DNA of 57,790 nt from Gloeopeniophorella convolvens. Taxonomy: Eukaryota; Basidiomycota; Agaricomycetes; Russulales. This document shows, in pieces, positions 31,603 to 57,790 of the stretch. How positions within the stretch are numbered: the stretch's first letter is position 1; each line of letters begins with the position of its first letter. The stretch lies in contig WTXD01000105.1 in assembly GCA_022496205.1 (NCBI GenBank), positions 1-57,790 of the forward strand, read 5' to 3'. A model generated the notes under the pieces. It saw only the letters and a program-made list of their open reading frames with translations, was not told the origin of the DNA and made no database searches. Position numbers and translations under genes: made by a program.

Positions 31603-31653
31603 CGTCCGGAAGGCCAGTAGTGTCAATAGTTGTTCATTTCCTATTTTCCTGCC

Positions 31654-31661
31654 CTTATATA
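31654..31661 (-). promoter_or_regulatory. TATA box of transposase gene
   Basis: TATATAAG on the minus strand, 52-59 nt upstream of the transposase ATG. Confidence 0.6.
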
Positions 31662-31892
31662 CACACAGATGTGGGTGTAGCGAGATCTAGCGAGATACAT
31701 CGTCGTAGAAACCGACACTTTGAGGGTATACTGACACGCCGGCTGCCACAGTATGTTGGAGGAAAGCCGAGGGAAGCGAACGTGGAGGAGAGAAGATGTG
31801 GGTACGGTCGCGGGTGCGTCGGACGCCGGGGTCGCGGATCAGCGGAACTAGCCCACGTGTAGACCCGAACGGCCGGACCGGGCCGGATGTCC

Positions 31893-38066: not shown

Positions 38067-40038
38067 CTAGCACTCACAGGGTTGATCCTGACGTATAATT
38101 GCATGTGAAGAGGGAAGTGAAGATAACACGTCTTGGACTTGAGCTAGGAACGGCCTTCTCTTGATCACAGTGTAAGCAATCACAAATGACCTCCTGAGGA
38201 TAATTCGATACTGTGCTTCTTCCTCGGGTCCTAAAACTTCTTCCAGGGTACGCAACCAGGTATCTTCATACAGCTCTAGCAGCGGTAGCGTCTCTTCGCG
38301 TATCAGGGAAAGCAAAAAAGCGACAAGTATAGTTGAGTTTCGCTCGGCCACGCCATCGACGCCATCTCCGTGCTTCCCGAAACGTTGCTCCTCGTGGTGG
38401 TACAGACGTCTCAAAATCAGGGAAAACCATTTCTCGTCGTCGAAGGGATCCAAGCGATGGATCAAGACAGAGATGGCGCATTGCGCAAGTAGCTGGAGGC
38501 GCGGGCTGTCCGATTGGAGGCAGCTTTCGGCCAACAAGGCAAAGTCAGTCGATGTGAAGAGGTGCAAGTGCGGGGAGCGGATTGCCAGCTCGAATGCGCA
38601 TAAGGGAGACGATGGGATCGCAGTGAATGCCTTGCAGCATATCGCAGCCCGCTGGTGTTTGGAACCGTCATCTGCGGTACCAAAAGTTGGCGGGCGAAGG
38701 GCAAAAGAGAGTATAGCGTTTCCCACTCGCAATGCCTCCTCTTCAGTGAAGTCGTTTCCCCGCTCGGGACCCAGGTATCCTGGTATGCTCGTGACGAGCT
38801 TCTCCAGCTCAGCGTCCTCATCCAGATTGTCGACCGCCCATAGCAATGCATATGCGTGAAGACGTGAAGATCCTTGATTATTCTCTACATGATGCCCAAT
38901 CTCCTTGACCAGTCCATCTCGCATGCGCCGGCGGAAGTTGTCCATTGCAGAATAAAGGCGCTTCTCCACGGAATGGCGAGAGTTGTGGAGAAGAGCATCT
39001 ATTGACCTCATTTCGAGGGAAATTCGATGAAAATTTCTCAGGACCACCCAAGCGGCGCTGGTCAAGAGAAGCCACACAGGTGCCGACAGAGGAGTGTAGT
39101 ATGGGCTGTCGCGGCGGATCACCGGCATGAGGCTAATGCATCCGTACAGGCCTACAGTGATGCCCACGCAGGCGAACACTACCGTAAACACTGTGTGATT
39201 GGTGCCGAACAGGAAGATGACGAGGCCTGCGAAGAAGAGGAAGACCGCGATGTGGAGGAGGGCGGGAAGGGCTTCGACTGCCCACGACAGATACAATTTG
39301 TCCACGCCTTGTGCCATGAATGAGCGAATGCGAGCTCGTCTTTCCGGGTTGTATCGAGTTTGGGTGATGCGCAGAAATCGGCGGGCCCATTGTTGGAGTA
39401 GCGTTGCGAGGAGCGCGCATGTCAGGCTGGTCACAAGGCTGGCAAACCAGAGTGCGTTGACCCAAACAGCGGACGTGGAAGGAGAGAACGCGGATGGGTC
39501 AGATAGCGTCGAAGGAACGGGGTGAGCAGAGCCATTCTGGCCGACGTTGAGCTGGTAGAGTTGAGCAAGGTAGAATGCTGAGGCATCCTGCGAGTTCAGC
39601 TGCAAGTTTTGGAATGACAAGGTGAGGAAGGTGGCGACGGTGGCCGAGAACAGACCGATCTATAGGATGCTTTGATGAGGAGATGGTCAGTGAGGATGTG
39701 TGATGGCGACACACGAAGACGAGGATGCCCTCTGCGTCCGCCTTCCATCCCTCCGTCATTTTCTTGTCCTCTTCTTCCGTCTTGTCATTGTACAACCGGT
39801 AAAACTGTTCTCGTTCTTCTCCTAGGGCCACTCCATAGCTCAAGCCAGAATCGATGACGGGCACTGGAGGCGACGTCGGTCGGCTACGAGGCCCTGCGGA
39901 CGATGCAGAAGTTGGCGCTGGCGCAGAATAACCAGGGACGTCGCCACTGGTGGCGGGCGCGGGGATGCCGGTGAGGGAGACGTCAGGTCCGGTAGGAATT
40001 TCTTCAATGATAGAATGATCAACAGCTGTGTCGGGCAT
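38067..40038 (-). CDS. DUF6535 membrane protein, intact copy
   Basis: Two exons (40038-39715 and 39659-38067) give 638 residues with exact phases. The start is the ATG at 40038 (MPDTAVDHSIIEEIPTGPD). The DUF6535 signature spans the intron: FYRLYNDKTEEEDKKMTEGW, then IGLFSATVATFLTLSFQNLQ, SAFYLAQLYQLN, the span VWVNALWFASLVTSLTCALL, LQQWARRFLRITQTRYNPER, and the hydrophobic pair around LLHIAVFLFFAGLVIFLFG and VFACVGITVGLYGCISLMPV. Four membrane spans are predicted by eye, followed by a ~400-residue helical cytosolic region. The family is confined largely to Agaricomycetes and has no established function. The copy at 10.2-12.4 kb is a broken paralogue. Confidence 0.85.
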
Positions 40039-40474: not shown

Positions 40475-41648
40475 ATGGACGTATCAGACATCCTCGCGTC
40501 GCAGGCTGCAAAGCAGTGAGACCCCGCACTGCCAGCAGTTACCCACAAAATTTGCTGAATTGTTTTCTGCGATAGCAAATCCATTCTCGTCGAGAAGGAT
40601 ATCCCTCTCGACATCGACACAGGCTTCCTGACGGTCACCGACACGAACCCCACAGACAAGGAGAGCTACGAGTACGTCGTGCACACCTTCTCTCGCCACC
40701 CCTCACTCATATCGGATCACCATAGCCACGACCGCGAGGCCTACCTACAAGCAACCGCGCGCGACGGCGTGCAGCTCCTCCTCGCCGCGCTCTTCTCCCT
40801 TCCCACCCTCGCCTCCCCCGACGGGCCTCTCGCCCAGCTCCCCGCACCCACGACGCAGCTCCCGCGCGCCAAGCCGCTCCCGAAGCCAAAGCCTCCGACC
40901 AAGTGGGAGAAGTTCGCGCGCGCAAAGGGCATCCAGGCTCAGCGGCGCGAGCGCAAGGTGTGGGACGACGAGCGGCAGGAGTGGGTCGCGCGCTGGGGCT
41001 GGAAGGGTGCGAACAAGGACGCCGAGACGCAGTGGCTGCACGAGGTGCCCGCCAACGCTGGTGCGCCGCCCTCCTCTGAGATCTGCGCATCCGATTTAAC
41101 CGCGGCCCAGATGTCGACCACGACCCGGCAAAGGAGGCGCGTGCGGAGCGCAAGGCGCGCGTTGCGAAGAACGAGCGACAGCACCTGCAGAATGTTGCGC
41201 GTGCGCAGGGAGGCGCGGCCAGCTCGGGTGCAGGCGCGCAGGCGGGGCGCAAGGGCGATATCGAGCGCTCGCTGGCGACGACGCGCGTGAGCACGGCGAG
41301 CATGGGCAAGTTCGACCGCACGCTCGAGGGAGAGAAAAAGCCGCGCGGCATGAAGCGCAAGGTGCGGTTCTCTCGCTCCGTATCTTGTGAATTTTGTTCA
41401 TCGACGCGTACTAGTTCGACCCAACGGAAAAGCCGGTTGAGTCGGAGAAGAGCGCGAACCTCGCGCTCATCAAAAAGCTAGGGAGCGATCCCTCGTCGAA
41501 AAAGGCGCGGCGGGAGGCTGTCAATGGCGAGGGCGACGTGCTCAATGTGCGCAAGGCGGTGCGGTTCGCGTCAAAAGGTGCAGGTTCTGCCGCGCTTGCC
41601 CGCAAATCCTCAGCGACGGATGGCAAAAAGCGCAAGGCAAAGCGGTGA
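40475..41648 (+). CDS. RRS1: Ribosome biogenesis regulatory protein RRS1
   Basis: Nucleolar factor that, with its partner Rpf2, brings the 5S RNP into pre-60S ribosomes. Five exons (40475-40515, 40576-40671, 40726-41060, 41111-41361, 41415-41648) give 318 residues with consistent phases. Signatures: the N-terminal EKDIPLDIDTGFLTVTDTNP, ARDGVQLLLAALFSLPT, LPRAKPLPKPKPPTKWEKFA, KVWDDERQEWVARWGWKGAN, then a basic coiled segment (AKEARAERKARVAKNERQHL) and a Lys/Arg-rich C-terminus. Normal family length. Convergent with the TFIIB gene 200 bp downstream. Confidence 0.95.
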
Positions 41649-41849: not shown

Positions 41850-42960
41850 CTACTTGGTCGTCTCTACCGGCAGCCGGTCCATGTTGACCTTGCCCTCCTT
41901 GATCCACTCCTTTTTGACGAGCTTCGTGCGGTCCGCGTAGTAAAGCCGGTACACGAGCTTGATCGTGCCCTCGCTCACACCTGCGACGACGCTGATGTCC
42001 TTGACCGCCTTGGAAACACCTAGAAGCAGACATGCGAAGTAAATCGCGCCGCCCGCAATCGACACAGGACTGCGCCCGTCCGCGATGCCGTGCTCGCGCG
42101 CCGCCACGATGATGTCCTTGCAGATCGCCTGCACGTGCGGCGGGAGATCGAGGTGATTGCAGTACCGCACGAGCAGATCCTCGGGCCCGGCCACGCCTGC
42201 CGCACCCGCCCGCGCGGCGCTCGACCCAGGTGTGAGGTTGAATGCCTGCTCGAGCGCCTTGTAGCACTGCCCAAGCACCTTCTTCGACACGTGCGTCAGG
42301 TTGCAGATCTCGCGGAACGTGCGAGGGACGTGCGCCTGGCGGCACGCGATGAAAATGCACGCTGCGATGACGGCGTCCAGTGGCTTGCCGCGTAGCAGCT
42401 TCTCCTCGTCGGCTCGCTTGTACAGCTGCTTCGCGATGTCGCTGATCGTCTTGGGCAGCGAGAACTGGTCGCACCAGCTCGATATGTCGCGGAAGGCGGA
42501 GAGGAGGTTACGCTCTGAACGCGAGTTCTGCGAGCGGGTCGCGGCGCGCTGCAGCTCCCGGGCGATACCCGAGCCGCCATCTTTGAAGCCGATGATGGTG
42601 TCGAGCTGCTCCATACCCTCCATAAGGGGGTCGGATGCAGCACCGACACGGGAGGGGTCATCGCCCTCGTCATTGGCGAATGTCTAGAGCACATGAGACG
42701 CCAGGTTCCAGCGCGATGGAACACAGGAGTCAAATCGCAAGCCGACGTACCCGCCATTCGCTCCTCGTGTCGACGACGCGGTCGCCGAGGACCAGTCCAC
42801 ACGACCCACATACGAGATCTCCTGCACCAAACTCCTCGATAATGGTTGGATTGGGATCCCTGCAGTCCGGGCAGATGAGGCGGACAGAGAGATCGGGTGC
42901 GAATGCGGCTTCTTGTAGCTTAGGGGGTGCAGCGAGGGGGAAGGGTTTCGGATAAGCCAT
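41850..42960 (-). CDS. SUA7: Transcription initiation factor TFIIB
   Basis: General RNA polymerase II initiation factor that bridges TBP-bound DNA and the polymerase. Two exons (42960-42751, 42683-41850), 347 residues, normal length. The zinc ribbon is CPDC ... CGSC ([40 protein letters not shown]). The B-reader/linker follows ([20 protein letters not shown]), then two cyclin repeats: [20 protein letters not shown] with [20 protein letters not shown], and [20 protein letters not shown] with [21 protein letters not shown] short Gly/Ala insertion ([14 protein letters not shown]) sits between the repeats. Confidence 0.97.
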
Positions 42961-45900
42961 TATCGAGGGGCAGGGAGGGTGTTTCTCGTATGTGGAGAAG
43001 GAGTGGGTTTGTGGACCTCAAATGCCAACTAAATAGACACAGGTGCGACACAGACACAAAGGAAAGCGTCCAAACTGGAACATCTCAATATCTGACAAAG
43101 GCCAAAGAGGTGTCGTTCTGAGTAGACCTACCGGAGCTTCTCAGCTGCCTCTCTCCTGCTGGTAAACTGCGACTGTTTTTGACAAATAGGCTGGTAACGA
43201 AGAACAACGACTGGCGGTGGTGATGGTCTGGCGGCAACAAATACGCCTTGACTGGTGACCGGTGACCGACGAAGACGGCGACGGCGACGGCGACTCGTCC
43301 GGCACCGTCGCGGAGTTCTCACGCTGCACGTGCCTTCCACAATCTTCCAGAATTCTCACGCTGCACTCTTGCGTCAGCCGCCGTCGGACCTGCTGGCGAG
43401 CCCTGGTGAGGCCCGCTGGTGCCGCGCACCCACCTGTCACCACCGGCCCCAATGCTCACGACATGCGCAACGAGCCTATCGTTCTTGAGTTTTCTGCAAG
43501 TTGCGCCCCGCCAGGAGTCGGAGCTAGCCGGCGGGGCCACGATGTTCAGATCATTCCAAGCCTTCCGGCGAAGCACGGCCTGTCTTCCACATTTCATTAC
43601 CGCACCTTTAGATCCCCGGAGCCCCCAACACCTGACTTGGTCTGTGCTCGCTGGGCCCCCAGACGGCCCTGCGGGCCCTGCGCTGGGTCCCTAGTTGCTA
43701 CATGCCGCGCTTGACTGCACCAATCGCGGTCCTGTGCTCCTCGGTTGCGCGCCCATATACATCAATGATCGTTCCACTTGGCACCAAGTCCTCAGTTGGC
43801 TGTCATCTTCGACAACATTTTGCGGGGCGGTACCAGCTCAAGGGCTCTGCCCCAAGCTGGCAGTTTCTGATGTACACGCATCGTACGTGCTCAAACGTCG
43901 AAGATTCGCCATCAAGGTCGAAAGCTAGGTATAATGGAAGGCTAGAGAACTACGTTGTTCTAAGTCGCTTAATCTCCATCTGTCTCCATTGGTGGCCTTA
44001 AGCTGGCTACAGAAGACAGTCATTCCGCGATGGACGAAGTATCTGCTACCAACGGCTATTCCCCGGCGGGGCTTGCTGCCATATGATCTCTTCAATTCAA
44101 CGTGCGCAACGTATACCGCAACGGCGATTCTGGCCGGTTCACTTCCGTCTGATAGAATCTGTCCCGTAGATATGGTGCGTGCGACGCCTTTTAGTATAGC
44201 CTTTTCTTAAAATTTCTCGCCGCTCTGTGCTCCAGAGTTAATGACGACCTCATTAGTGAGCGGGATCATTGTGACTGCCACGCAATTTCCCGTGCTTCGA
44301 TGAGAATCAAACGAACATATGATTGGTTTGAGCGCGTGCCGCGCACAAATTGCCAGACGGGTGTTTTACATGCGCCGGTGCGCTTGCCTCGCGGTGAACC
44401 TCATGAAAGACCCTCTTCATGACATATCTGGCGATGGTACAACGGCACGTGTTCCGTATTGTCAGGTGTTCGAGTTCCACGCTTACCGTTCTTCTTGGCT
44501 TTCTGATAAGTGAGACTTCGCGAGTAAGGTAGGCGTCATGAGGATTCAACTAGGTTTATGTAAGCGGAATTCCGATGAAACCACCCACTACATCTGGTCT
44601 GGGATGGGGCATCCTTTCGACAAAACACTTCCACTGCAGCAAATAGCTCATGTATCTCTATCATTCAGTGGAATTAAAAATTAAAAATGTTGAGAGATGC
44701 ACTCAGGGAGATCAGAAAAGTGCAATGTTTCCCAAATGCATTTTCCACACGAAAGGAGTCAAATCAGATCATCTTTAATAATCCGTCCAGTGGGTTGGAA
44801 CATTATGTATATGCTACGTAACCAATCATGTGACTTTCGGGGAGTTCAACAAGTCGTGCTCCGTTCGGTCTTCCGGCCGGGCCGCTTTCCCGGATCCTCT
44901 CCCCCTGCCTCCGCTACTCTCAGTTCTGTCTCGCTTGACCTGATTCTCCCTGGCTCTCGCATGCAAGAATCGACTCCAGCCTCCACCTCCACTGTATAAC
45001 GGCACGCAGCAAAACTACGCAATTGTTGATGAAGAAATGACAGGCGCGTTGTCACTTTATGTACATTTTTGTTGCATCCAGCATTTTGAGCTCCAGCTCC
45101 CGAAAACCCATGTGATTTCATTGATGTAAATACTGTACAATCCTCCTATTACTCTGTAGTATATTGTAGTATGTACTGGCTCCAAATGACAGCATTTCTA
45201 CACTTTGCATCATCCCCCCCCTTTTTCTGCTCCCTTCATTTGCTCTCCCCCACTCGAATTTGCTTCAAGCCACTGCACATCCTCATCTCGAACCTCCACA
45301 CCACACCATATCACACTTATATATATTGAATCTACAAGCTGTTTATGAGGATTGATGTTCCTAAGCCTTGAGACTCGCAAGTTGAAACATTACGGCATGA
45401 CGTAACCCCTAGGGTTAGGGGCTACGTAAACCTAGTTGAATCCTCGTGACGCCTACCTTAGCTTTAGCCGCACCACTGAAGTGGCTTCCCCTTTCGTCAC
45501 GAAGACGACCCCATGGCGCCAATCTACCGCGGCCAGCGCCTCTAGCGCCTGTGAGCCAATTTCATACGATATTGCCGCAGTCTCGATCAACTGATTACCT
45601 CGAGTTCAGCTCTGAGCTCGGGCTTCGGCGGCCACGGAGATCGCCCGCGAACTCGCGCAACTCGCCTTACCTTGCTCCCGCCACCTTGGCTCTTCCTCGA
45701 CTCTATTGGGGACTAGGACTTGCAGATTGGTCAAACGGGGACCGCTTGCGTACGTGCACCGATCATCCTTGCTTGCTGAACGTCGCTGAGACGCGGTCCG
45801 CCCACTCGCAAGCCTCCGCTCCCCCGGAACACGGCACGCGCGAGATTGCGCAAAGACAATCGCCAGTACGCGTGATACACCGGCCGGTGCTCTGCAATTC

Positions 45901-46091: not shown

Positions 46092-46749
46092 ATGCAGATA
46101 TCCTCGCTCCTCGCCATCATCACCTTCGCCGTCGCTGCGTTCCCTGTCGCTGCGTTCCCCGCCAACGCTGGTATGTGTCCCCCGCGACGAGCTGCCCTTG
46201 CACTTGTTGATGTTTGCGTGTGCAGCCGTCGCTCGTCGTGCTCCCTACGAGTACTCCTTTGACAAGCGCGTTCCCCACGAGTATTCCTCTGGCCAGGATG
46301 AAGATGCCCTTATCAAGCGCGTCCCTCATGAATACTCCTCTGGCCAGGATGAGGACGCCCTTGTTCGACGTGTTCCTCACGAGTATTCTTCCGGCCAAGA
46401 CGAGGATGCCCTCGTTAGACGTGTCCCCCATGAGTATTCCTCCGGCCAAGACGAGGATGCTCTTGTCCGACGCGTTCCCCACGAGTACTCCTCTGGCCAG
46501 GATGAGGAGGACCTTGATAGGCGTGTTCCTCACGAGTACTCTTCTGGTCAGGATGAGGATGCCCTCGACAGGCGCATTCCTCACGAGTATTCCTCTGGTC
46601 GAGACGAGGATGCCCTCGTTAGACGCATCCCCCATGAGTATTCCTCTGGCCAGGACGAGGATGCCCTCGACAGGCGCGTTCCCCACGAGTACTCTTCCGG
46701 ACAGGACGAGGAAGACCTTGACAGGCGTGTTCCTGAGTACGATGACTGA
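46092..46749 (+). CDS. Kex2-processed repeat protein, candidate RiPP precursor
   Basis: Two exons (46092-46170, 46226-46749) encode 200 residues. The signal peptide is MQISSLLAIITFAVAAFPVA. After a dibasic site (VARR) come one short divergent unit (APYEYSFDKR), nine 17-residue units of the form VPHEYSSGQDEDALVRR, and a terminal VPEYDD. Every unit ends in KR or RR, the Golgi Kex2 cleavage site. The PHEYSSG part is nearly invariant, while the acidic end varies (DEDALI, DEDALV, DEEDLD, DEDALD), as expected for a core plus spacer. This is the layout of dikaritin precursors such as UstA, which also have a signal peptide and tandem Tyr-containing cores. The neighbouring UstYa-like, methyltransferase and tyrosinase-like genes support that reading. 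The product structure is unknown; it could instead be an unmodified secreted repeat peptide. Confidence 0.9.
46270..46728 (+). repeat. Nine tandem 51 bp units
   Basis: Exact multiple of 51 bp in frame, each encoding one 17-residue unit. Synonymous differences between units show they are not simply sequencing duplicates. One unit has SSGRDED instead of SSGQDED and two begin Ile instead of Val. Confidence 0.95.
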
Positions 46750-48611
46750 GTCCTCCTCTCGTCAGTAAGCGTCCGTCCTTTCATCGGCTTCTGTTACATC
46801 GCTTGACTTCCATGCTTCTCAGATGTGCCTCAGTAACAGCGCAGGATTGCGTCGTCATCATATTTCACTATCCACTTGCTGCAATACGTAGTTGTCTCTG
46901 GGCGGATTGGTTTTGATGGACGCACCCTTAGTCTTGATATCTTCTCACGTCTACGGTAACATTGAAACGTAAATAAATGAAACAACTTCTCACTCTCCGT
47001 TGTCGTGAAATTGTGCCTCGTGTCGTGGAGTGACAGTGTGAGAGCGTACGTGATGCCAGCGTATGAGCCCGTCTTGACCTGCCCTATAGTGCATGGTCCG
47101 TGCGCACCGCCAACGGAATAAATTCTCGCGCGCGACAATACGAATCCTCATACTTACCTTGATGGCATAGGCCCCTTCACCTACCTGGGTTTATGGGCCG
47201 TGGGGGCCTCCCATAGCACGGCGACCCTGTCCTCAGGGGGAACTCGCGGTTTGTATGGGCTTCGGCTCATGCACCGTCTCAATATTTCCCTGTCCCACTC
47301 CGGCCCTCGGGCTGGGTGGGCCTTTTTTGTTGCCGGTCCACCGGCCTAACCCTAACCCTAGTTGCTACCAGTGCCAAAAGGCCAAACACTCTGAGTGTCT
47401 CGAAATACAAAGACAGTTCATAATATGCATAGGAAAGCGAGTGGCAGATAGTCTGATCAAATGCCTGTGTGAGAGACCATCCATTTATATCTCAGAGAAT
47501 GGTTGCGTAGTTGAGGAACCGCGTTCTCAGCAACTCGCGGCTCTCCGCACGACCACCACCACCATATCCGACTTCGCATAAGAAAATGAAGATGAAAGAC
47601 CAGCATCGGAAATCCGCCCTCGCTTCTCTTATCACACATAACATCCCTGCACTCTCAGAGCTGTTCATGTGTGCAGCGCCGACCGCCTTTGACGACAAGG
47701 TCATGACAGCGCAACCGCCCTGCAAGCACCAACCTTTACCGCATGTTGGCCACGCGACGTTTGGATATCCTCTTCGCAGGGAATCACGCACACAGCATGG
47801 AGTGGTGATGGGTCTTGCAGCTGAAGAAATGTGCGTAGTCCGTTGATATTCGTCTGCATCGAGACTGATACCATTGCGTAGATGGAGACAAGGTCCGCCT
47901 CGCTGTTTTCGGGAGAGCACACCGACGATGACGACTGCTCCATGGATTCCCACTCATCCAGAGCCTTTGTGTTCGTCGAGTCAGAAAGATAGGATAAACA
48001 TATCCTGAGATACGAGGCGTACGTCCCGTGCACCGTGCCTACCGTTCGGTCTCCGACTATCTATAGAGTCGACATATCTGACAATGTAACCCCAAGGTTA
48101 CCCCGATGCAGGTCAATTATTCCGCCAACGGGCGTCATCTGGGGATCAGCTCTTCTTCATGGCCTACGGCGGGAGTCCGATGACTCTGCAGCGCGCGCAC
48201 AGTAACCACCCGTGCATCGCTCACCTGTGCTGTCCGCCCTTTGTCGGTCATGTCCGTGGGCTTGACTCGATCGTTAACCTGTTGAAATAAGTAAAGGGAT
48301 TGCCGTGCAGATGATCACCGTCTCCGAGTAAGTATCATGTACATTGAGCATTTAAGCCGACTGGGCCAGCGCGTCGGGCTGACTACTCTGTCCCTGCAGA
48401 CAAGCCATTTCCGACAGGGCCTTCTCACCCGATGGCCATTATCTCGTTGTAATTGCGGGGCCGTATATCGATATCGTACGCTGCATCTCTGCACTCAGCT
48501 AATGGTGATTATTGTCTACCGCAGATCCACTCGATGCGACTGGCTCATAAAAGCAGTCCAAAATACCGAAGGATTTCCGCACAATGGCAATGCCACGACA
48601 CAAGGCTGTAT
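46750..48611. other. Intergenic within cluster
   Basis: No confident gene in 1.9 kb. A minus-strand frame from an ATG near 47949 (MEQSSSSVCSPENSEADLVS...) down to 47701 is open for ~83 codons below a TATAGATAG near 48060; it could be a small gene but has no family. A short telomere-like repeat at 47345 lies here. Long plus-strand open frames near 48337-48610 have no family resemblance. Confidence 0.35.
47345..47360. repeat. Interstitial telomere-like repeat
   Basis: CCTAACCCTAACCCTA, about two and a half copies of the fungal telomere unit CCCTAA, in unique sequence far from any visible chromosome end. Confidence 0.75.
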
Positions 48612-49477
48612 CTACGCCTGGCCGTACATCTTTGCGTGCGCCATGGGATTGTGCTTCGGGTCGGGGAACGCAACCTTCCACTGGTCCTCTATGTGGTCCC
48701 ACACCTGGCGCCAGTCATGGCACTTGTGGATAACGTCATAACCTCCCCTTACCGAAGTCTCCTTGCGTCCATCAGAGAGGGTGTGTACGACTTCTTTACC
48801 GGGCTCTAGAGTGATGTCCGCGTTACAAAGCAGCGCCTGCGGTCCCACAAGGTCACATCAGATATCTTCATATGACCGCGCTCACGCCTGGCCTACCTGA
48901 CGCAAGTAGTTGAAGCAGTGCTTGATATGACCTGACTCATCCTTGGCACCTGCGAACACCTGTATAGGTTCCTTCAACAAATTTTGTACGTGCCCGAAAG
49001 GATCTTTCCGCTCACCGCGCGCAGTCGAACGAGGCAGTGCATCTGGTGGAACATCGCGACGCCGAAAAGCTCCTTGTGCCCGCCGAGCTTGATGTAGCCT
49101 CGACCAAGCGGTAGGTTAGCATCCCAGACGGGACCGGCGTCGGGGTCGTATATGTCCATGTACGGCTCGCTGTCATTGAATGCCATGCTCACAGTGCGGA
49201 GCGGGGCAGGAAGTTGGAGCTCCTGCGGCCAATCGCCATCCACGTACGCTATGGGAGACCAGTCAGGGTGCTGAAGGCGAAAGCATAGTCAATATATCAA
49301 CTGACTGTACTTTCCCTGCGCCTGGGGGAACAGTTGGACCCTCATCTGGTACAAGAAGACAAGGATATTGAGCGCAAGCATGCTGACAGATGCAATGACC
49401 ACGAAGGATGTGCGCATCTTCGACGGACGCGGGCGACGGTCGATGATGATGGGGCTGAGGGGTGCTTTGTCGTCCAT
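48612..49477 (-). CDS. UstYa-like (DUF3328) membrane oxidase
   Basis: Four exons (about 49477-49340, 49270-49016, 48959-48897, 48836-48612), ~227 residues. N-terminal cytosolic basic stretch, then one membrane span (MRTSFVVIASVSMLALNILV) as in type II Golgi/ER proteins. The domain follows: WSPIAYVDGDWPQELQLPAP, LPLGRGYIKLGGHKELFGVA, the first metal motif HQMHC in MFHQMHCLVRLR, the second HxxHC in GHIKHCFNYLRQ, and LLCNADITLEPG. Both HxxHC motifs and the C-ADxTLEP block define the UstYa family, which carries out oxidative cyclisation of RiPP core peptides in ustiloxin, cyclochlorotine and related pathways. The exon 1 donor is uncertain (GTCCAA preferred by phase). Intact. It lies 1.9 kb from the precursor, on the opposite strand. 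Confidence 0.9.
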
Positions 49478-50252
49478 TGCTGTTCTAGCAGGTGCAGCGT
49501 TGGGGGGCCGGCCTGAGGAAATTCGATCGCCCTAAATGATTTTCTCGCGACGCTCAATGGGCGGCCTGCAATGATACCCGTTCGGTCCCTCTTGAAATGC
49601 CCAGCGGACTCAGCCAGGCCTCAGCTCCGCAAGGTAAAACGTACTCAAGCACGATCGCCTAGATGGCGCATGCTGCTCTATCGCGCGGATCATCTGATGG
49701 TTTTTCTCAGTGGAGTGCAGACGCCCTGTCGTCACCGACAGCATTCATTCACAGACGGAGACCCGCGTGTGCCATAAAGTTTGGAACCAGTCCGGCCAAG
49801 TTCCCGGGTCGAGGGCCTTAAATGGATCTCCGATCATACAATCTCCGGTGGAACCCGGGGTTTAAAAAGCTCGCTAATCATTGTGTGGCACATCTCGCCT
49901 CGTTTCCGTCATGACCTCGCCTCGCATTCACACTGTCGCCGGTGGATCCCAGCGCCTGGTGCGGTGCAACACGGGGAATCCAGAACGGTTCGAGTAAGCA
50001 AGCAGGCTGCTAGGGCCCACTCCGCGCAAACGAATGAGTCGCCGAGCTCGAGCTCGAGTTTTACTACATGGAATGTCCTGGAATGACGTTCGAGTCCGCA
50101 GCTCGGTAGTACGTACTGCGAGCCCTCGATCCTCCCTCAGCTCCCTTGTCCTTCCCGCTCTTCCCTTTCCTCAGGCTATCCCTCTGAATTGTCACGCATG
50201 TTTATCCCCACCGCCGCCACTGTCGCCTGCATCGTAGCCGTCCTCATTCGAT
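49478..50252. other. Divergent intergenic region in cluster
   Basis: Between the UstYa-like gene (-) and the unknown gene (+). Probably holds both promoters; nothing distinctive recognised. Confidence 0.35.
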
Positions 50253-50949
50253 ATGTCGATGCTACAGGTCCGCGTCCGTCATTCAGCGTGCACTATCCCT
50301 GGGCCACGCGCGGTGCGTTCCCTCAGGACCGCCGCCAGTTCGATCGCTTCCAACCCTTCTGCCGTACGCCGCCATTTCTGTCATCGCACTGCCATCATTG
50401 TTGAATCCCAACACGATGCAGGCGACATCATACGCAATCCCCAAGTCTACTCAGGCTATGCACCCTCGTTCGTGTCTTTCTCTGGCCCTCCTGGGGATCT
50501 CGGTGCGTAGATTCTTGCCCTGGCGAATACCCTGCTCAGCAGCTCGTCTGATGGCTCTTTCCGAATACACAGTGAGCGTACGCTACACGCGCAAGCGCGT
50601 TCCCCGCAGTCGTGGCGAATTCCCCGTCCTCATCGCGGAAGACGTGCCCATTGCTCCTTCCGGGCAGCTCTGCTTTGACATCCAGACGCCTACGCCACTC
50701 ACAAGTCCAGAGTATGGTGTGTTCTTGTTCGAAGCACGCGATCCCGCAACGGGCGTGCTCGAATACCATGTGAGCACGACTTCTTTTCACCAGTCCGAAT
50801 GATACGCTGGAAAGCTAATGTGCCGCCGCAACCGCAAACAGTGCCTTGATGTGAGGCTGCAGGAGCACGTTGCATTGGGCGCTGATCACCCTGCGATGTG
50901 CGCGCAGAACAATGAGACGTTCATCCCCATGCCGGATGAGTACTTGTAG
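50253..50949 (+). CDS. Unknown 184-residue protein in RiPP cluster
   Basis: Three exons (50253-50502, 50573-50769, 50842-50949) join with exact phases into 185 codons, which argues for a real gene although I recognise no family. The N-terminal ~45 residues are Arg/Ser/Ala-rich (MSMLQVRVRHSACTIPGPRA), like a mitochondrial targeting sequence. An alternative start at 50198, in another frame, would give a signal-like MFIPTAATVACIVAVLIRYV but then stops early. The folded part looks all-beta: PQVYSGYAPSFVSFSGPPGD, VSVRYTRKRV, GEFPVLIAEDVPIAPSGQLC, PEYGVFLFEARDPATGVLEY. It ends MPDEYL. It might be an accessory cluster protein or an unrelated neighbour. Confidence 0.6.
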
Positions 50950-51169
50950 TAGTCCTGTGATTATATACGGAAATTCCATGGTGCTCTCTGATTTTCGCTG
51001 CTCCAAGCTTAGCGCTGAATATTTTTCGTTCAAGGTCAATTTTCAGTTGCCGAGGAGTGCTTCTTCGATCTGGCGCCAATTCGACGGCGAAGTCTAATCT
51101 CGCGCGCCCAACGTTAAATTCCATCAGACACAAACTACTGTCGTCTGACTCAAAATATCTACAGAATTT

Positions 51170-52590
51170 CTAAGCCTGTTTTAGCGGTTTATGCGCGGTC
51201 CAGAACTGTGTACCTACAATGACGATTAGTTTAACCGCATCAAGTGCTATACGGAGACTCACCATATGTGTACTGGAGTAGTGAACCTATCTGGTGTCCA
51301 TACACGGCCTCGATGGTACGACGAGAGCCTTGATCGATAGTGAAACCAATGATCCGCGAGAGGTCCAGCATTTCCTCTGCGGACAGCTGGAGCTGAGAAT
51401 GCTTCCCCCATTTGAAAGCTAATAAAATATCAGCTCCTCAAGGAACGGCGGTGCGCCGCTAAGAGCACGTACGACCGAGGTTTATCCAAAGACCGCCAGG
51501 CTTGAGTAGGCGGTAGATGTTTTCGATGAAGTCCATGGCATCCTCGGATACGTCAATGAAGAAGAGCGTGACAATGGCATCGTATCTGGCGTCATCAGGA
51601 AATTGGGTTAGGAAGTCGCCCTCGACGAGGCGGACAGGGGTTGTTGGAAGCATATCCGGGAAGCGCGTCGCGCGAAAACGGCTGGTACGTGTACCTTGGT
51701 GCTGCCACTTATGGATGAAGGGATGCACCGAATGCTGTAACGCATGGCTCGTATTATTCAGCAACCAGCGGTACGGGATTACAGAGCCGTAGTCCAGCTC
51801 GCATGCGTCGACCTTGAAGTCTGGAACGCAGTCAGTAACTCGCGCGTGGAGAAGTTTGCGAGAAAAGTCGCGCACCCTTATTCTTCGCAATTTCATGCGC
51901 AAGACGACCCAGACCGAATCCTGGCAGAAGAATACGCTTCGTCCCACGGCCGCCTGAGAACTCCGACTGCAGTGCCGTGAGGATAGGTGAGTGGATGGTG
52001 TCACGTTCTGCAGAGCCTTCCTCGGTCCAGTCTCGTACCACATGGCCGAGGAAGTCTGACACGAGCTCGTAGTTCACCGAATTCGCTTGCCTGTCCGGGG
52101 CTATCCCGTACGCGTCGCGTGCGTAATCGGCGATGCTGCGCATGAGCGGCGCGTTCTGGGCCACGGCAAGTTCTGCTGCCTCGAAGTTCTTCGAGTGCCC
52201 GATGGCGTCCGCGATTGGCCGATGCTTTGGAGGCAGACGTTCAAAGACCGCTCGTCGAATGTCAATTATTTGCTGAGCAGAGTACGAGTAGAAGTGGAAG
52301 GCAGTGATGGCAGTGAGCGCACGGGCTTGGTCAAGAGAGAGTTTCTCCGCTTGCAAGGGGTTTTTACGAATTTCCTCTGGGGAATGGATGACTGGAGCAT
52401 GTTGTCGTTGTTCGACATTTGCGCGTTCTAACGAGGGGGTCTCAACTGTGTGGATACGGATGCTAGAACCTGCAGGGATGTTGATTGTGATAGAGATGGG
52501 AGAGTCTCTGTAGTAGATAGCTCCCGCAATGGCGAGCAGGCCGACCACCAAAGCTGCGAAAGTGGGGGTTGGACGAAGGAGACGCGACAT
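51170..52590 (-). CDS. Membrane-anchored N2227 / carnosine-N-methyltransferase-like enzyme
   Basis: Four exons (52590-51876, 51820-51473, 51418-51263, 51213-51170) give 420 residues with all phases exact. N-terminal membrane anchor (PTFAALVVGLLAIAGAIYY), unusual for this family and placing the enzyme in the secretory pathway. The N2227 (CARNMT1-type) SAM-dependent methyltransferase domain follows: HSPILTALQSEF, SAM-binding LLPGFGLGRLAHEIA, ACELDYGSVIPYRWLLNNTS, HPFIHKW, VRLVEGDFLTQF, YDAIVTLFFIDVSEDAMDFI, LLKPGGLWINLGPFKW, LSAEEMLDLSRIIGF, and a terminal FWTAHKP. CARNMT1 methylates the histidine ring of carnosine. Here it sits beside a secreted precursor whose repeated core contains His, so the peptide is a plausible substrate. 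That link is inference. Confidence 0.85.
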
Positions 52591-52904
52591 GGGCGATCGC
52601 AAGTCCGGATACGCTTCGGGAAAAAAGGCTGAACAAGAGGCGCACGAATTCGAGCACGGGGTGAAAGCTGCTCCACTGGGCGCGGGCTCGAACAAAGGTC
52701 GCCAGAAGAGATTTCAGTCCCTGAACCCTGATGCGGAAGGCCTGCGTAGGCCGCGATCGTGGGGAACAACACCATGTGGGCGCGAGCGTCGAGACGAGGA
52801 GCAGAAAAACAAATGGCGTCTAAGAGTCGTGGAACGCGGACGCTCGCGGATGAGGTCGCCTGAGGCGGCGCAAGTTTTCGGAGCAGCCGAGAGATCTCGA
52901 TTGG

Positions 52905-52911
52905 ATTTATA
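52905..52911 (-). promoter_or_regulatory. Possible TATA box of methyltransferase gene
   Basis: TTATAAAT on the minus strand ~315 nt upstream of the ATG at 52590. The distance implies a long or spliced leader, so assignment is tentative. Confidence 0.3.
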
Positions 52912-53135
52912 AGCTCCTGCTTGGCTAGCGTTCGGACTTTGGAAATCGGACCTTGGGACCCCTGGCATCCCTTTGGGACTCGCGCACGCCGCTCAGTGCC
53001 TCACTGAGACCAGTGGGGGATCTGGGCGCCGAACGCGGGCACGAAACCATGAGGGCCGACTTCACAGCTTTGCAGCAGCCAACTTGTGCCCCCCACTGGC
53101 TTCGGGCACCTGGAATTGACGTCTGAACCCCCACT

Positions 53136-53302
53136 ATGCAGATCATACTCTCTGCACTTGTTCTTATTTCCTTTCTGGTTGTTTGGGCAAGTTCCCCGCC
53201 ATGTCGCTCTATCGCGTTGCGACAGGAGTGGAGAACACTGTCCACAGAAGATAGAGCTGGCTGGCTGGCTGGCGTGAAGGTGATAGGTCTGCTCTCTGAC
53301 TT
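53136..53302 (+). CDS. First exon of a probable secreted tyrosinase, cut off by retrotransposon
   Basis: Starts with a strong signal peptide (MQIILSALVLISFLVVWASS) followed by PPCRSIALRQEWRTLSTEDR and AGWLAGVKVIGLLSDL. The R-x-EWRTLS-x-E-x-R ... AVK pattern is the conserved N-terminal helix of fungal tyrosinases (usually RxEWRxLSxxE...YxxAVxCL), just before the first copper site. A donor GTGCGT at 53303 ends the exon, and 54 nt later the Copia LTR begins. The copper-binding histidines are not in the window and should lie beyond the element if the gene survives. UstQ-type tyrosinases belong to ustiloxin clusters. The call rests on one exon. Confidence 0.6.
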
Positions 53303-53356
53303 GTGCGTACTTTTACTAAGAAGGCTTATTCAAGTGTCTGGCATCGTTCCGCCATG

Positions 53357-53812
53357 TGTTGAACAGGCATAGCGCAGCTACTGTATTGCTCTATACTACA
53401 GTATTAACTACTGATTCTCACCAGCTAGAGGCTTGAGAGCGATAGAGCTGTAGTGGCAGGAGACACTGGTATTTGCAGTTCCTACAGGTGGCTTTTATAT
53501 ACAGGAGGACCCCTGGGGTCCATAAATGGCAGAGGCGTGACTAATGGTGTCCACAATATCGCAGATTTGGCCCTGTACAGGCCTGCCTCAATGGATTTCG
53601 GCCTCATGACTTGTCACGCGTTTGAGAAACGGCCCGGTGAGTAAGGAACGTGATAACTACAGAAGTATCGTACGTAACACTACGGAAATCAGATATGATG
53701 GAGCCTAGTATCCGGACTATCTACCATCAAAGTTCCAGCTCGCTGGCGCAAGCTGTGTTGCACGTGCGGCCATCCGAATGTCGGAGAACATCGGACTCGC
53801 CTTTGCTCAACA
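53357..53812 (-). repeat. Copia 3' LTR, 456 bp
   Basis: Bounded by TGTTGA ... TCAACA. On the element's strand it begins TGTTGAGC immediately after the polypurine tract GGGGGAG (53813-53819), the usual Copia arrangement. Confidence 0.9.
53492..53501 (-). promoter_or_regulatory. LTR TATA box
   Basis: TATATAAAAG on the minus strand inside the LTR, the expected U3 promoter element. In this copy it drives transcription towards the methyltransferase, in the same direction as that gene. Confidence 0.7.
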
Positions 53813-53844
53813 CTCCCCCATGCTAAGTGCAATGTCTAATCACA

Positions 53845-56800
53845 CTAAGCATCTGAAGGCGAGTAAAACTCAAGCTCAAGTTGACTCCTGAACTTCAGGA
53901 ACTTAACACGCCCTAGGTTCTTAGTGAACATGTCTGCAGGGTTTTCAGCACCATCAATGTAGAATAGTTCTACTTGTTTCTGCTGTACCACTTGTCGTAT
54001 ATAGTGGAAGCGAATATCAATGTGCTTGAACCTGTGCTCTTGTACGGGGTTTGAGGCGACAAATATTGCGCCCTGATTATCCCCACAGAGTGGAATGGCA
54101 CCTAGATTGATGTCAAGCTCTTCTAGAAGTGACTTAATCCAGACTACCTGTCGACTAGTATCACTCATCGACATGTATTCAGCTTCAGTGGAAGACAGCG
54201 CTACAGTACGTTGCGCTCTAGAGTTCCAGCTAAATACTCCATCTGCTAGTTTCACTAAGTATCCAGTAGTAGATCGGCGATCATTTGGGTCAGAAGCCCA
54301 ATCAGAGTCTGCGCAAGCAAACATCCCTTTATTAGAGCGTCCATCATAGACTAGCGCATAGTTTGATGTGCCAGCTAGATAGCGACAAATGTACAGTGCT
54401 CTATTAAGGTGATCCTGTGAAGGGTTTGCTGCAAAACGCGACAGCTTTGTGACTGCAAATGCTATATCAGGACGAGTCCCTAGCATTATATAAAGCAGTG
54501 AGCCAATCACTTGCTGGAATTGAGTGCGAATGTTTGCGTCTACTGGAGACGTGTTAGGGAGTGGCTGATAGCCTTCTGGCAATGGAGTTGGAACATGCTT
54601 AGCATCTGTAAGCTTAAAGCGCTTAACTACTTTCTCAAGGTATGGTGTTTGGTCAATGTAAATTTTGCCATCCTTTCGAAGTATGCGCATGCGCAGAAAC
54701 TCCTTTGCGTCTCCTAGATCGCGACATTCCCACTTTTTCATAAAGTCAGCCTTTAATTTGGCGACCAAGGGCTTGCTATTCCCTAAGAATATGGCGTCAT
54801 CAACATAGACAACAACCACAACTATTTCGCCTTTTTTGCCTTTATAGACAAATAGGCCAGAGTCAGATATAAGGCGTTTAAAGCCTAGTTCTGCCATGGA
54901 CTCATCTAGCGCTCTCCACCAAGCAAGAGCAGCCTGTTTAAGACCATAAATGGCGCGTAATAGTCGCAGTACTTTGCGCTCTTGGCCTTTCACCTTAAAG
55001 CCTTCAGGTTGTTCCATATACAGCTCCTCATCGAGTTTACCATATAGGAAAGCACTTTTGACGTCTAATCCAGTAATGTACCAGTCCTCTAGTGCTGCCA
55101 AGGCAAGCATAAGACGAACTGTTTCATAACGAACAACTGGAGAGAATATCTCATTGAAGTCGACGCCTTCAACCTGTGAAAAGCCTTTGGCTACTAGCCT
55201 AGCTTTCTTACGACCATCGGATTTCTCATCAAAGACCCATCGGTTTTTAATGACCTTCCTCCCTTTAGGAGGGTCCACCAGCACAAAGACATTACGCCTG
55301 CGAAGTGCCTCTAGTTCTTCACGGCATGCTGCCTTCCATTCCTTTTGCTGCGCTTCAGGCATGCGCAAGATGTCCTTATACGTCCATTCTCTAATGTTAG
55401 ACGTGTCTAGTGGTTGTGAATCTGGTGGTACCGCTTTTGCAAGCAGGTAATTCACGAATTGTACTCCCCCTTCCTGTGCTAGTTGCGATAAAATATCATC
55501 AACTTCATCATCACTCCCCCTTAAGGGTGATTGCGGATTTTCGCTCATGTGTTGTGGATTTTTGTCAAGACTAGGCCCAGGAACCTGTCTTTGATGAGTA
55601 GATTTATCCTTTTGGGAGCTACCCGAGGGTTTCTCTACTAAGTCTTTCCACTGACGCATCCGCTGAACATCTTTATGTTGTTGTACAGGGTGCCTGTTTT
55701 CCCCATAGATGTTACCAGGGCGTGATGGTACTTTCCTTTCCCGAGTTGAGCGCCTGGGCACAAAGCCTCCAGGGACATTATCCTCTTCATCAGGGGATTG
55801 TTCTCGCTCTAATTCTGGCTCAGGAGTAGGCGCACGTTGTTCAGGTTCCTCATCAGGTTCCCGTTCATTGTTCCTTTTAATAGGAGAGGGGGGACGGCTC
55901 TGCGCCTGTGGCTGCGGATCGTCTTCCACTAAAGGAATGGGCTGATGGTCATTTTCCGAACCATCCTGACCATTAATAGGGTCATCTAATTGTACTACGC
56001 TCCTACGCTTTGTAGTGGAACACTTAGGGAAGAGGTCTTCATCGAACAAGGCAGTAGTGCCTGTATAGATGGAATTGTTCTTGAGCCGCATGAAGAGGTA
56101 CCCTTTAACACCCTCAGCTTGTCCAAGATAGACCATAAGTTCGCTTTTAGGGGCTAATTTATTGGTGCGGCGCTCTTCAGGGATGTAGACATACGCTCCA
56201 CATCCAAAGACTCTAAGATGAGAGACCTCTGGCGTCTTACTATGCAGCAACTCATACAGTGTGCGCCATTTAAGGCGTTGAATGGGGGATCTATTGTAGA
56301 GATGTACTGCATGTAGGACGGAAAATTCCCACCAGGAATCAGGAAGACAAGCATCAAAGCGCATAGCTTGAGCTTTATCCATACAAGTGCGCATGAAGCG
56401 CTCTGCGCGTCCATTTTGTTGTGGAGTATAAGGAGCACTTTGTAGGATCTTTATCCCTAAGTCCTTTAGTGCGCTAATGAACGCATCAGACTTATATTCG
56501 CCACCAGCATCGGACATCCACTCTTTGATAGTGGTGTTATACTGGTTTTTGACCATAGCAACAAACTGCTTAAGCGCATTGATAGCAGAAGCTTTATTGC
56601 GCAAGCAGACAACCCATGCAAACGATGTGAAGTCATCCACAAAGCTAATAAAGTATTTATACTTGTGGTAAGACTCCACTGGGAAGCTTTTAAGATCGCT
56701 ATGAATCTTTTCAAAAGGCGAAGATGCGCGTGACTCAGAGGGCAAGTATGACTTTGAAGGCATCTTTCCTTGAGCGCAACCAGGACATAAGGGTACTTCC

Positions 56801-57566
56801 TTAGGAATTACTACTCCTTGTGGGAACCCCTTAGTATGATCTTTAGCATGGCGTAGAACATCCTTTGACGGATGACCCATACGCTTATGCATAAGCTCAT
56901 AGTCTAAAGCATAGATAGTGGTATTACTGCGAGCATCACTAAGCTCAGCATGTAGCCAATAGATAGTATGACCAGGATAGGTCGGTATACATTGTACTGA
57001 AGGTGTACTAGACCCCTTTTTGTACAGAGACAAGTACTGCGCATCACCAAGGATGTGCATACCTTGTTGTAGGAACTCTCCAACTGATAGAAGTCTTCCA
57101 GTAAGATTAGGGATGTAATATACAGGATAAAGGCGTGTTATAACGCTTTTTACAGTCCCTTTATGTCTGACTTCGTGCTTTAGAAGTACGGAACCCTTTC
57201 CTTTGATAAAAATCGGATTTGAAGCTGTTTTAACAGCTATAGGGTTTTTAATCTCTTCGTACTCAATAAAGTCATTTAGAGTGTTCGTAAAATGAGAGGA
57301 GGCACCTGAATCAAGTAGCCAACTTGTAGTACCATTGTCTACTTGTTTTCCCTTACAATGCGGACAATCACACAAAGTGTTAGTCATTGCGCAATGCGGC
57401 GCAGTTACATTCAGACACTTTATAGTACTAGGAACTTTACATCTAGTACTACTTGCTACAAGTCGTTCGCGTTTACATACGGCTACTAGACGAGCATAAA
57501 AGTGTCTGTCAGCTTTGTTAGGGAGTAAGAAGACAGGAGGTACTAACGGATCTTCAAGTCGTCATC
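53845..57566 (-). CDS. Copia pol polyprotein
   Basis: The frame is open from about 57566 to a stop at 53845, over 1,230 codons. A zinc-finger-like Cys/His cluster (CDCPHCKG) precedes the aspartic protease (WLLDSGASSHFTN). The integrase has the HHCC motif (MHKRMGH ... CPGCAQGK) and DDE residues (IHSDLKSF, SDAGGEYKSD, QNGRAERFMRT). An acidic Pro/Glu linker precedes the reverse transcriptase (WKAACREELEALRRRNVFVL; catalytic YVDDAIFLG), and RNase H follows (ADSDWASDPNDRRSTTGY, SSTEAEYM, DNQGAIF, HIDIRFHYIR). No inactivating change seen. The order integrase before reverse transcriptase identifies the Copia superfamily. Confidence 0.96.
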
Positions 57567-57790
57567 CTCATTAATGCCAGCAGCATCAGGGATTTCTACA
57601 TCCAAGTCTGAACCCCAATCAAGGGGTTCATCGTCATCAGGAGGAGGAGGTGAAGCTGTCTTGCTGCGCTTTGCAGGTGGCGGCGAATCTTCTTCCTCCA
57701 AGTCTTCAACTGTGACTTTGGACGATGTAGCATATCCTCCTAGACGCGCTTCAAGCGGCTTGAGGTTGCGGGCAGACTTGGCGACGTCAA
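57543..57790 (-). CDS. Copia gag-like frame, C-terminal end
   Basis: Open from the window edge to a TAG at 57543-57545 (DVAKSARNLKPLEARLGGYA ... DAAGINEDDDLKIR). Acidic and proline-rich, as in Copia gag linkers. The pol frame lies one base away and overlaps it by about 20 nt. Translation would need a frameshift here, or one base is missing. Confidence 0.7.
   Translation of the reverse strand, partial: DVAKSARNLKPLEARLGGYATSSKVTVEDLEEEDSPPPAKRSKTASPPPPDDDEPLDWGSDLDVEIPDAAGINEDDDLKIR

What the first reader, a model, noticed from the sequence alone, without database searches (positions are those of the whole stretch)
46092..53356. Candidate dikaritin-like RiPP gene cluster in a basidiomycete
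Within 7.3 kb there are a secreted Kex2-repeat precursor, a UstYa-like DUF3328 oxidase with both HxxHC motifs, a membrane-anchored SAM methyltransferase, an unknown small protein, and the first exon of a probable secreted tyrosinase. Precursor plus UstYa plus methyltransferase plus tyrosinase is the gene logic of ustiloxin-type pathways, known mainly from ascomycetes. The proteins whose topology can be seen carry signal peptides or membrane anchors, fitting maturation in the secretory pathway. The core sequence (PHEYSSGQ-type) and the N2227-type methyltransferase do not match any member I know, so product chemistry may be new.
Basis: partly seen in the sequence, partly recalled or inferred. 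Interest (0 to 1): 0.93.

Follow-up and report, generated by a model that had tools for sequence, protein, structure and literature searches.

The report
Mushroom peptide cluster with histidine methyltransferase
A crust fungus related to the russula mushrooms carries a compact set of genes that looks built to make, cut out, oxidise and methylate a short secreted peptide, and two of its enzyme genes stay together in other mushrooms, which points to a peptide pathway not yet described in these fungi.

Summary
The contig (Gloeopeniophorella convolvens, Russulales, by its annotated proteins) carries over 7.3 kb: a secreted precursor with nine 17-residue units ending in dibasic sites; a UstYa/DUF3328 protein with both HxxHC motifs; a small secreted-looking protein of unknown family; a membrane-anchored CARME/N2227 methyltransferase; and the start of a tyrosinase-like gene. 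That last gene is cut in exon 2 by an LTR of a Ty1/copia-like element, in which the contig ends. Among the nine units PHEYSSG shows no non-synonymous and 122 synonymous differences (36 pairs), so the peptide is kept by selection. UstYa and CARME homologues share a contig in three further mushrooms (one Russulales, two of one Agaricales family), 4 and 6 locus tags apart in two of them. The methyltransferase model matches CARNMT1 best, then histidine methyltransferases of ovothiol and ovoselenol synthesis. Best reading: a conserved basidiomycete Kex2-repeat RiPP pathway, like dikaritins, whose new element is predicted N-methylation of the core histidine beside UstYa oxidation at the invariant tyrosine. 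Not shown: expression, product, a precursor in the other species, an intact tyrosinase. Basidiomycete repeat precursors near DUF3328 genes were already catalogued, so I call it a new variant.

The parts
46092..46749 (+). precursor gene (exons 46092-46170, 46226-46749), 200 aa, secreted Kex2-repeat protein
   Evidence: spliced model; no other listing in the protein search
46270..46728 (+). nine 51-nt units coding V/I-PHEYSSG-Q/R-DE-x-x-L-x-K/R-R
48612..49477 (-). UstYa/DUF3328 oxidase gene (exons 49306-49477, 49016-49248, 48897-48959, 48612-48836), 230 aa, one N-terminal transmembrane stretch
50198..50949 (+). small secreted-looking protein, 183 aa, unknown family (exons 50198-50363, 50422-50502, 50573-50769, 50842-50949); a decayed relative of its start lies on C68 beside a decayed precursor copy
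51170..52590 (-). membrane-anchored CARME/N2227 methyltransferase (exons 51876-52590, 51473-51820, 51263-51418, 51170-51213), 420 aa
   Evidence: identical to P0001
53136..53356 (+). start of a tyrosinase-like gene (exon 1 53136-53279, 22 nt of exon 2 53335-53356), interrupted
53357..53812 (.). LTR that interrupts the tyrosinase-like gene; the Ty1/copia-like reading frame follows on the minus strand (53845-57561) to near the contig end
   Evidence: 26 other matches, edge at 53357 in most of them; for the frame; the name Ty1/copia is recalled from the protein's look, no profile was run

Best explanation
A basidiomycete RiPP gene cluster of the Kex2-repeat plus UstYa kind. The precursor enters the secretory pathway and Kex2 cuts after each dibasic site (inferred from the sites). 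Every unit then begins with VP, IP or AP, the XP dipeptide type that STE13 removes, which would leave peptides that begin HEYSSGQDE... (inferred; STE13-type trimming is reported for other agaricomycete precursors). The UstYa protein, anchored by its N-terminus, oxidises the peptide at the invariant tyrosine, most likely making a cross-link (inferred from the family's known chemistry). The anchored CARME enzyme methylates a ring nitrogen of the core histidine (inferred from family and fold). Shown here: gene anatomy, selection on PHEYSSG, family assignments, and shared contigs of UstYa and CARME homologues in four species. Because the tyrosinase-like gene is interrupted in this assembly, this strain may make an incomplete product or none, unless that gene is dispensable.
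For: Repeat anatomy and 0 against 122 non-synonymous/synonymous differences in PHEYSSG. UstYa: PF11807 and invariant HxxHC. CARME: PF07942 and human CARNMT1 by sequence, E 1.5e-33; a second CARME gene at C90 resembles the ordinary CARNMT1, so this copy is not that one. Fold: ranks 1-8 of the PDB matches are carnosine N-methyltransferases, ranks 9-19 are OvoA, OvsM and OvoM chains (model mean pLDDT 86.3). FFID Asp in 29 of 30 and an acidic post-I residue in 30 of 30 (27 Glu, 3 Asp) of the homologues I chose from 78. The nearest relatives form one group, 17 of 38 rows, support 100/99, all with a hydrophobic N-terminus (best 19-residue mean 1.47 to 2.96). Same contig by length, and close tags: Artomyces 348044 (UstYa P0084; CARME P0002, P0004), Tetrapyrgos 631795 (P0086 D9758_009353; P0003 D9758_009349), Stygiomarasmius 99910 (P0085 VKT23_020330; P0008 VKT23_020324).
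Against: No expression and no product. No precursor seen in another species: the one precursor search listed nothing, not even the window's own gene, among 7996 scored candidates (capped). Bondarzewia and two Athelia have close UstYa (61-72%) but no CARME in the list; Tetrapyrgos P0005 and Stygiomarasmius P0007 are CARME copies on contigs without a listed UstYa; Dendrothele, Hohenbuehelia and Pluteus have CARME but no UstYa in the list. Tetrapyrgos and Stygiomarasmius are one family, so they are one lineage. The first, shorter unit has Tyr in place of His. A decayed precursor copy on C68 has no UstYa or CARME beside it. The glycosylation sequon is in 17 of 17 near relatives but also in 3 of 13 others. 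One UstYa, no transporter or peptidase seen. In the dikaritins whose methylation is described, the N-terminal tyrosine amine is methylated, not histidine (PMC11285071 passage).
Confidence: 0.62

Rival explanations
1. The precursor yields plain linear peptides (a signalling or structural Kex2-repeat product) and its closeness to UstYa and CARME is incidental.
For: Most basidiomycete precursors of this kind have no DUF3328 neighbour: 1577 of 1680 (from 103 of 1680, PMC7329392); linear STE13-trimmed peptides are reported in agaricomycetes (PMC9769878 passages); the decayed precursor copy on C68 has no UstYa or CARME beside it.
Against: UstYa 1.9 kb from the precursor; invariant tyrosine in 10 of 10 units; UstYa and CARME linkage elsewhere. 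In the 19 other UstYa loci held (3 kb each, several overlapping) and 12.8 kb more at C101 my repeat detector found no second such precursor, so the pairing is special within this genome.
Confidence: 0.2
2. UstYa and CARME form a conserved pathway whose substrate is something else (a small molecule, non-ribosomal peptide or another protein), and the precursor is a bystander.
For: Their linkage is seen in three other species while no precursor was recovered there. UstYa-like proteins also serve non-RiPP pathways (recalled).
Confidence: 0.13
3. A real cluster that is now dead in this strain: the tyrosinase-like gene is cut by an LTR and the pathway is decaying.
For: LTR edge at 53357 inside exon 2; 9 of 26 other LTR matches are 99-100% identical, so the element family is young; a decayed partial copy of the locus on C68.
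Against: Precursor, UstYa, CARME and small-protein genes are all open with good splice sites. Compatible with the best explanation rather than exclusive; asperipin-2a is made without a tyrosinase (PMC12048977 and PMC6514808 passages).
Confidence: 0.3
4. CARME acts on the peptide's amino terminus or another side chain, as dikaritin methyltransferases do, not on histidine.
For: UstM and PhomM methylate the N-terminal amine (PMC6514808, PMC11285071 passages).
Against: Family and fold matches are histidine methyltransferases; FFID Asp kept.
Confidence: 0.25

Closest known systems
Dikaritins (ustiloxins, phomopsins, asperipin-2a)
   Same: secreted repeat precursor with dibasic sites, UstYa/DUF3328 enzyme, methyltransferase gene, tyrosinase-like gene, tyrosine in the core
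   Different: basidiomycete; core PHEYSSG; one UstYa; methyltransferase is CARME/N2227 with a membrane anchor (the family of UstM and PhomM was not checked by sequence); tyrosinase-like gene interrupted; no transporter or peptidase seen
Basidiomycete Kex2-repeat precursors with DUF3328 neighbours (PMC7329392)
   Same: same pairing, counted for 103 of 1680 basidiomycete precursors
   Different: its main text has no 'methyltransferase' and no 'PHEY'; I could not see its supplementary tables, so this precursor or its type may be listed there
Agaricomycete Kex2-repeat peptides (PMC9769878)
   Same: Kex2 and STE13-type processing in mushrooms
   Different: peptides reported as linear with few modifications; 0 occurrences of DUF3328 or UstY in the text
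CARNMT1 (histidine N1 methyltransferase)
   Same: fold, SAM motifs, FFID Asp
   Different: about 25% identity; N-terminal membrane anchor; separate fungal group; GPLLYHF in the human chain is GPFKWG here
Epichloecyclins (GigA, GigC)
   Same: repeat precursor and side-chain N-methylation
   Different: dimethyl-lysine by GigC, ascomycete endophyte (PMC11285071 passage)

Membership tests
Kex2-processed repeat protein (KEP) | N-terminal secretion signal | tested here: met
   hydrophobic N-terminus, best 19-residue mean 2.22; no signal-peptide predictor was available
Kex2-processed repeat protein (KEP) | repeated units separated by KR or RR | tested here: met
   nine 17-aa units, all ending KR or RR
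Dikaritin cluster (five genes of Ding et al. as quoted in PMC12048977) | precursor with leader and repeated core | tested here: met
Dikaritin cluster (five genes of Ding et al. as quoted in PMC12048977) | tyrosinase | tested here: inconclusive
   54 residues of a tyrosinase-like start, then an LTR
Dikaritin cluster (five genes of Ding et al. as quoted in PMC12048977) | methyltransferase | tested here: met
   CARME family
Dikaritin cluster (five genes of Ding et al. as quoted in PMC12048977) | multiple DUF3328 proteins | tested here: not met
   one in the window; the contig ends 4.4 kb after the LTR edge; asperipin-2a also has one
Dikaritin cluster (five genes of Ding et al. as quoted in PMC12048977) | transporter or peptidase | tested here: not met
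   no Pfam match in 10 further ORFs of 43.6-53 kb; beyond the contig end unknown
Dikaritin (product) | peptide with side-chain cross-link | not testable with these tools
   no chemistry or expression data
UstYa family | PF11807 above cut-off and two HxxHC motifs | tested here: met
   68.9 bits, cut-off 25; 8 of 8
CARME (PF07942) | profile above cut-off | tested here: met
   176.1 bits, cut-off 27, on the 425-aa draft
Histidine methyltransferase (activity) | methylates an imidazole nitrogen | not testable with these tools
   needs an enzyme assay
Tyrosinase (PF00264) | copper-binding domain | tested here: not met
   no domain in the window; C8 is not among the 14 matches of the genome scan

The most novel reading that the evidence does not exclude
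A RiPP family spread through mushroom-forming fungi in which a UstYa oxidase and a secretory-pathway histidine methyltransferase act together on a His-x-Tyr core, giving a cross-linked peptide whose N-methylhistidine becomes N-terminal after STE13 trimming, a possible metal ligand; ascomycete members of the same anchored methyltransferase group may mark unrecognised clusters there too.
Probability: 0.35. Interest if true: 0.85.

Novelty: new variant of a known kind. Interest (0 to 1): 0.66.

Why it matters
Dikaritins are filed under ascomycete RiPPs in a 2022 review (PMC9233826, passages), and the 2020 survey suggested that cyclisation of such precursors might hardly occur in Basidiomycota (PMC7329392). 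A conserved UstYa and CARME pair next to a precursor under strong selection makes that directly testable in mushrooms. If CARME methylates the core histidine, it would be a side-chain methylation that a 2024 review of RiPP methyltransferases does not mention (no word beginning 'histidine' in its main text), done inside the secretory pathway. The pair is also a simple search key for further clusters, which precursor searches miss because the cores differ and the genes are often not annotated.

Tried and rejected
Precursor homologues in other species: one search, nothing listed at E up to 10 among 7996 scored candidates; not evidence of absence, since the window's own gene was not listed either. 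UstYa solved structures by sequence: none at E up to 1. Remaining exons of the tyrosinase-like gene: contig C8 ends at 57790; none of the 14 PF00264 matches in the genome is on C8; two sets lie 1.2-2.1 kb from the start of contig C204 but repeat the set at C361:697k, so I did not assign them. A second allele of the 46.0-53.4 kb region: DNA search gave only C8 over most of it, plus partial C68 matches and a roughly 270-bp dispersed repeat. Housekeeping origin of CARME: rejected because an ordinary CARNMT1-like gene lies at C90. Pfam hits of the precursor to DUF3683, AvrPto and others: below cut-off, no stretch passing alone, judged repeat artefacts. My first CARME model used a wrong splice site, replaced after comparison with P0001. 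The glycosylation sequon as proof of lumenal topology: weakened, since 3 of 13 sequences outside the group also have it. Whether UstM or PhomM belong to PF07942: not settled; paper searches gave no answer.
Full report
What is there. The window is the whole of contig C8 (57,790 bp) of a 36.7-Mb, 404-contig genome. Two of its proteins are annotated as Gloeopeniophorella convolvens on a 57,790-bp contig (P0001; P0079), a species of Russulales. Upstream of the cluster lie ordinary genes: TFIIB at 41850-42683 and RRS1 at 40559-41290. The cluster spans 46.09-53.36 kb and then a retrotransposon runs to the contig end.

Precursor. The gene has one 55-nt intron and codes 200 aa. After the hydrophobic N-terminus and AVARR come APYEYSFDKR, nine 17-aa units and VPEYDD. 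All nine 51-nt units differ in DNA, and every one of the seven codons of PHEYSSG varies among units, yet only synonymously: 0 non-synonymous and 122 synonymous differences over 36 pairs. The rate ratio is 0.043 over the first nine codons and 0.164 over the acidic tail. The pairs are not independent and gene conversion between units may add to this, but conversion would also remove the synonymous differences that are plainly there. His is in 9 of 10 units (Tyr in the first), Tyr at the EYS position in 10 of 10. Each unit begins with VP, IP or AP, the XP dipeptide that STE13 removes; removal of XA/XP after Kex2 cutting was reported for an agaricomycete precursor made in Pichia and inferred for others in mushrooms (PMC9769878, passages). 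If that holds here, the histidine becomes the first residue (inference).

UstYa. Four exons, 230 aa, PF11807 at 68.9 bits. The splice choice at the first intron is supported by orthologues that read YTYxxGDWPxEL. Closest homologues: Bondarzewia mesenterica 72%, Artomyces pyxidatus 80% over two thirds, Athelia 61-63%, Stygiomarasmius 51%, Tetrapyrgos 48% (9 hits among 184 candidates). The genome holds at least 19 other UstYa matches, a lower bound.

Methyltransferase. Four exons, 420 aa, identical to P0001. The AlphaFold2 model (mean pLDDT 86.3) matches carnosine N-methyltransferase chains at ranks 1-8 and then OvoA, OvsM and OvoM chains at ranks 9-19, enzymes tied to histidine or its sulfur and selenium relatives by their titles. 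CARNMT1 is a protein histidine methyltransferase that makes 1-methylhistidine (PMC12275196, abstract and passages). The Glu whose change inactivates the human enzyme (E229) falls, by counting along the alignment with an offset of 47, on E246 here, and the Asp of FFID would then be human D316, which I recall as the imidazole-contacting residue. The N-terminus is basic and then hydrophobic, as in type II membrane proteins. In a tree of 38 of the 78 hits the 17 nearest rows form one group (100/99) with basidiomycete and ascomycete members, all with such an N-terminus. Other CARME groups with hydrophobic N-termini exist, for example in Mycena, Obba and Fusarium, so the anchor alone is not unique. 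The genome's other CARME gene, on C90, resembles the ordinary CARNMT1.

Conserved linkage. The protein search gives no context, but it prints contig lengths and locus tags. UstYa and CARME homologues share a contig in Artomyces pyxidatus (348,044 bp), Tetrapyrgos nigripes (631,795 bp; D9758_009353 and _009349) and Stygiomarasmius scandens (99,910 bp; VKT23_020330 and _020324). Artomyces is Russulales; the other two are both Campanellaceae, Agaricales, so with this window there are two lineages, not four independent cases. Against this: of the seven named species with a UstYa hit, three (Bondarzewia, two Athelia) show no CARME in a list that scored only 7993 candidates; Tetrapyrgos and Stygiomarasmius also have a CARME copy on another contig; Dendrothele, Hohenbuehelia and Pluteus have CARME without a listed UstYa.

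Small protein. 183 aa, hydrophobic start, no Pfam match. A diverged stretch of C68 is colinear with the window: precursor start and end, the dispersed repeat, and the start of this small gene, in the same order. There the precursor pieces are not in one frame (read), the small gene contains a stop, and no UstYa or CARME was found (best UstYa match E 0.051). So precursor and small protein were once duplicated together and decayed, which hints that the small protein belongs to the set. I did not search its relatives elsewhere, the three protein searches being spent.

Tyrosinase-like gene. The start MQIILSALVLISFLVVWASSPPCRSIALRQEWRTLSTEDRAGWLAGVK resembles the start of a tyrosinase gene at C257 (39% over 31 residues; weak in the whole-genome scan, E 0.046). 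A 55-nt intron with good ends leads to exon 2, and after 22 nt an LTR begins at 53357. The LTR (53357 to about 53812) has 26 other matches in the genome, 9 of them 99-100% identical, so the family was active recently. The rest of the gene is not on this contig. Whether the gene is dead in nature, in one nucleus only, or mis-assembled cannot be told.

Mechanism. Shown: anatomy, selection, families, linkage. Inferred: Kex2 and STE13 processing; UstYa oxidation at tyrosine; histidine N-methylation; export with the secretory pathway. As a membership claim it is incomplete: of the five genes named for dikaritin clusters (quoted in PMC12048977) two are met, the tyrosinase is inconclusive, and multiple DUF3328 and a transporter or peptidase are not met in view. 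So it works like a dikaritin pathway, and I do not file it as one.

What is known. Basidiomycete precursors with DUF3328 neighbours: 103 of 1680 (PMC7329392, passages and section 7). Pleurotus has 16 UstYa-like genes, probably for dikaritin production (PMC8893723, passage). Searches for the core or for the methyltransferase in RiPP work found nothing relevant: HEYSSG 0 papers; carnosine N-methyltransferase with RiPP 0; ustiloxin with N2227 0; N2227 with biosynthetic gene cluster 1, on plant iridoids; UstY with basidiomycete from 2019, 12 papers, of which I saw the listing and passages of five. The library holds open-licence papers only and supplementary tables were out of reach, so earlier notice of this cluster cannot be excluded.

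Score. A specialist would find a conserved UstYa plus secretory histidine methyltransferase pair in mushrooms surprising and easy to test; the repeat-precursor plus UstYa idea itself is not new. Interest 0.66, new variant of a known kind.

Noticed in passing
window 47092-47361: About 270-bp dispersed repeat, 88-96% identical at eight other places or so in the genome (C174, C101 twice, C13 twice, C130, C56, and C68 as part of a longer 87% match), next to telomere-like TAACCCTAACCCTA letters; sits between precursor and UstYa.
   Followed up: partly
window 45405-45420 and 47346-47362: Short telomere-like motifs (CCCTAGGGTTAGGG, TAACCCTAACCCTA) inside the contig.
   Followed up: no
G000:C68:406463-416754 (L044, L056): Colinear, decayed duplicate of the precursor and the start of the small-protein gene, without UstYa or CARME.
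   Followed up: partly
G000:C52 and C366; C204 and C361: UstYa and tyrosinase matches with identical scores on pairs of contigs, suggesting unmerged alleles or recent duplications in the assembly.
   Followed up: no
window 53357-57790: LTR and a 1238-aa retrotransposon-like frame on the minus strand; the contig ends inside the element.
   Followed up: partly
window 18184-18918: Weak, below cut-off match to the pro-kumamolisin activation domain; neighbouring frames at 14.6-19 kb look like further sedolisin-type peptidases (recalled, no profile match for 15661-16803).
   Followed up: partly
window 30385-31686: Ulp1-type peptidase domain (PF02902) beside long frames without Pfam match (27170-29122, 29118-30350) that look like transposon proteins (recalled).
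   Followed up: partly
window 38067-39659: DUF6535 protein; similar frames at 10.2-11.7 kb and in L044 7079-9382 by eye.
   Followed up: no
P0012, P0015-P0022: Ascomycete relatives of the anchored methyltransferase (Alternaria, Aspergillus turcosus, Apiospora, Beauveria, Parastagonospora, others); whether they sit in repeat-precursor clusters is untested.
   Followed up: no
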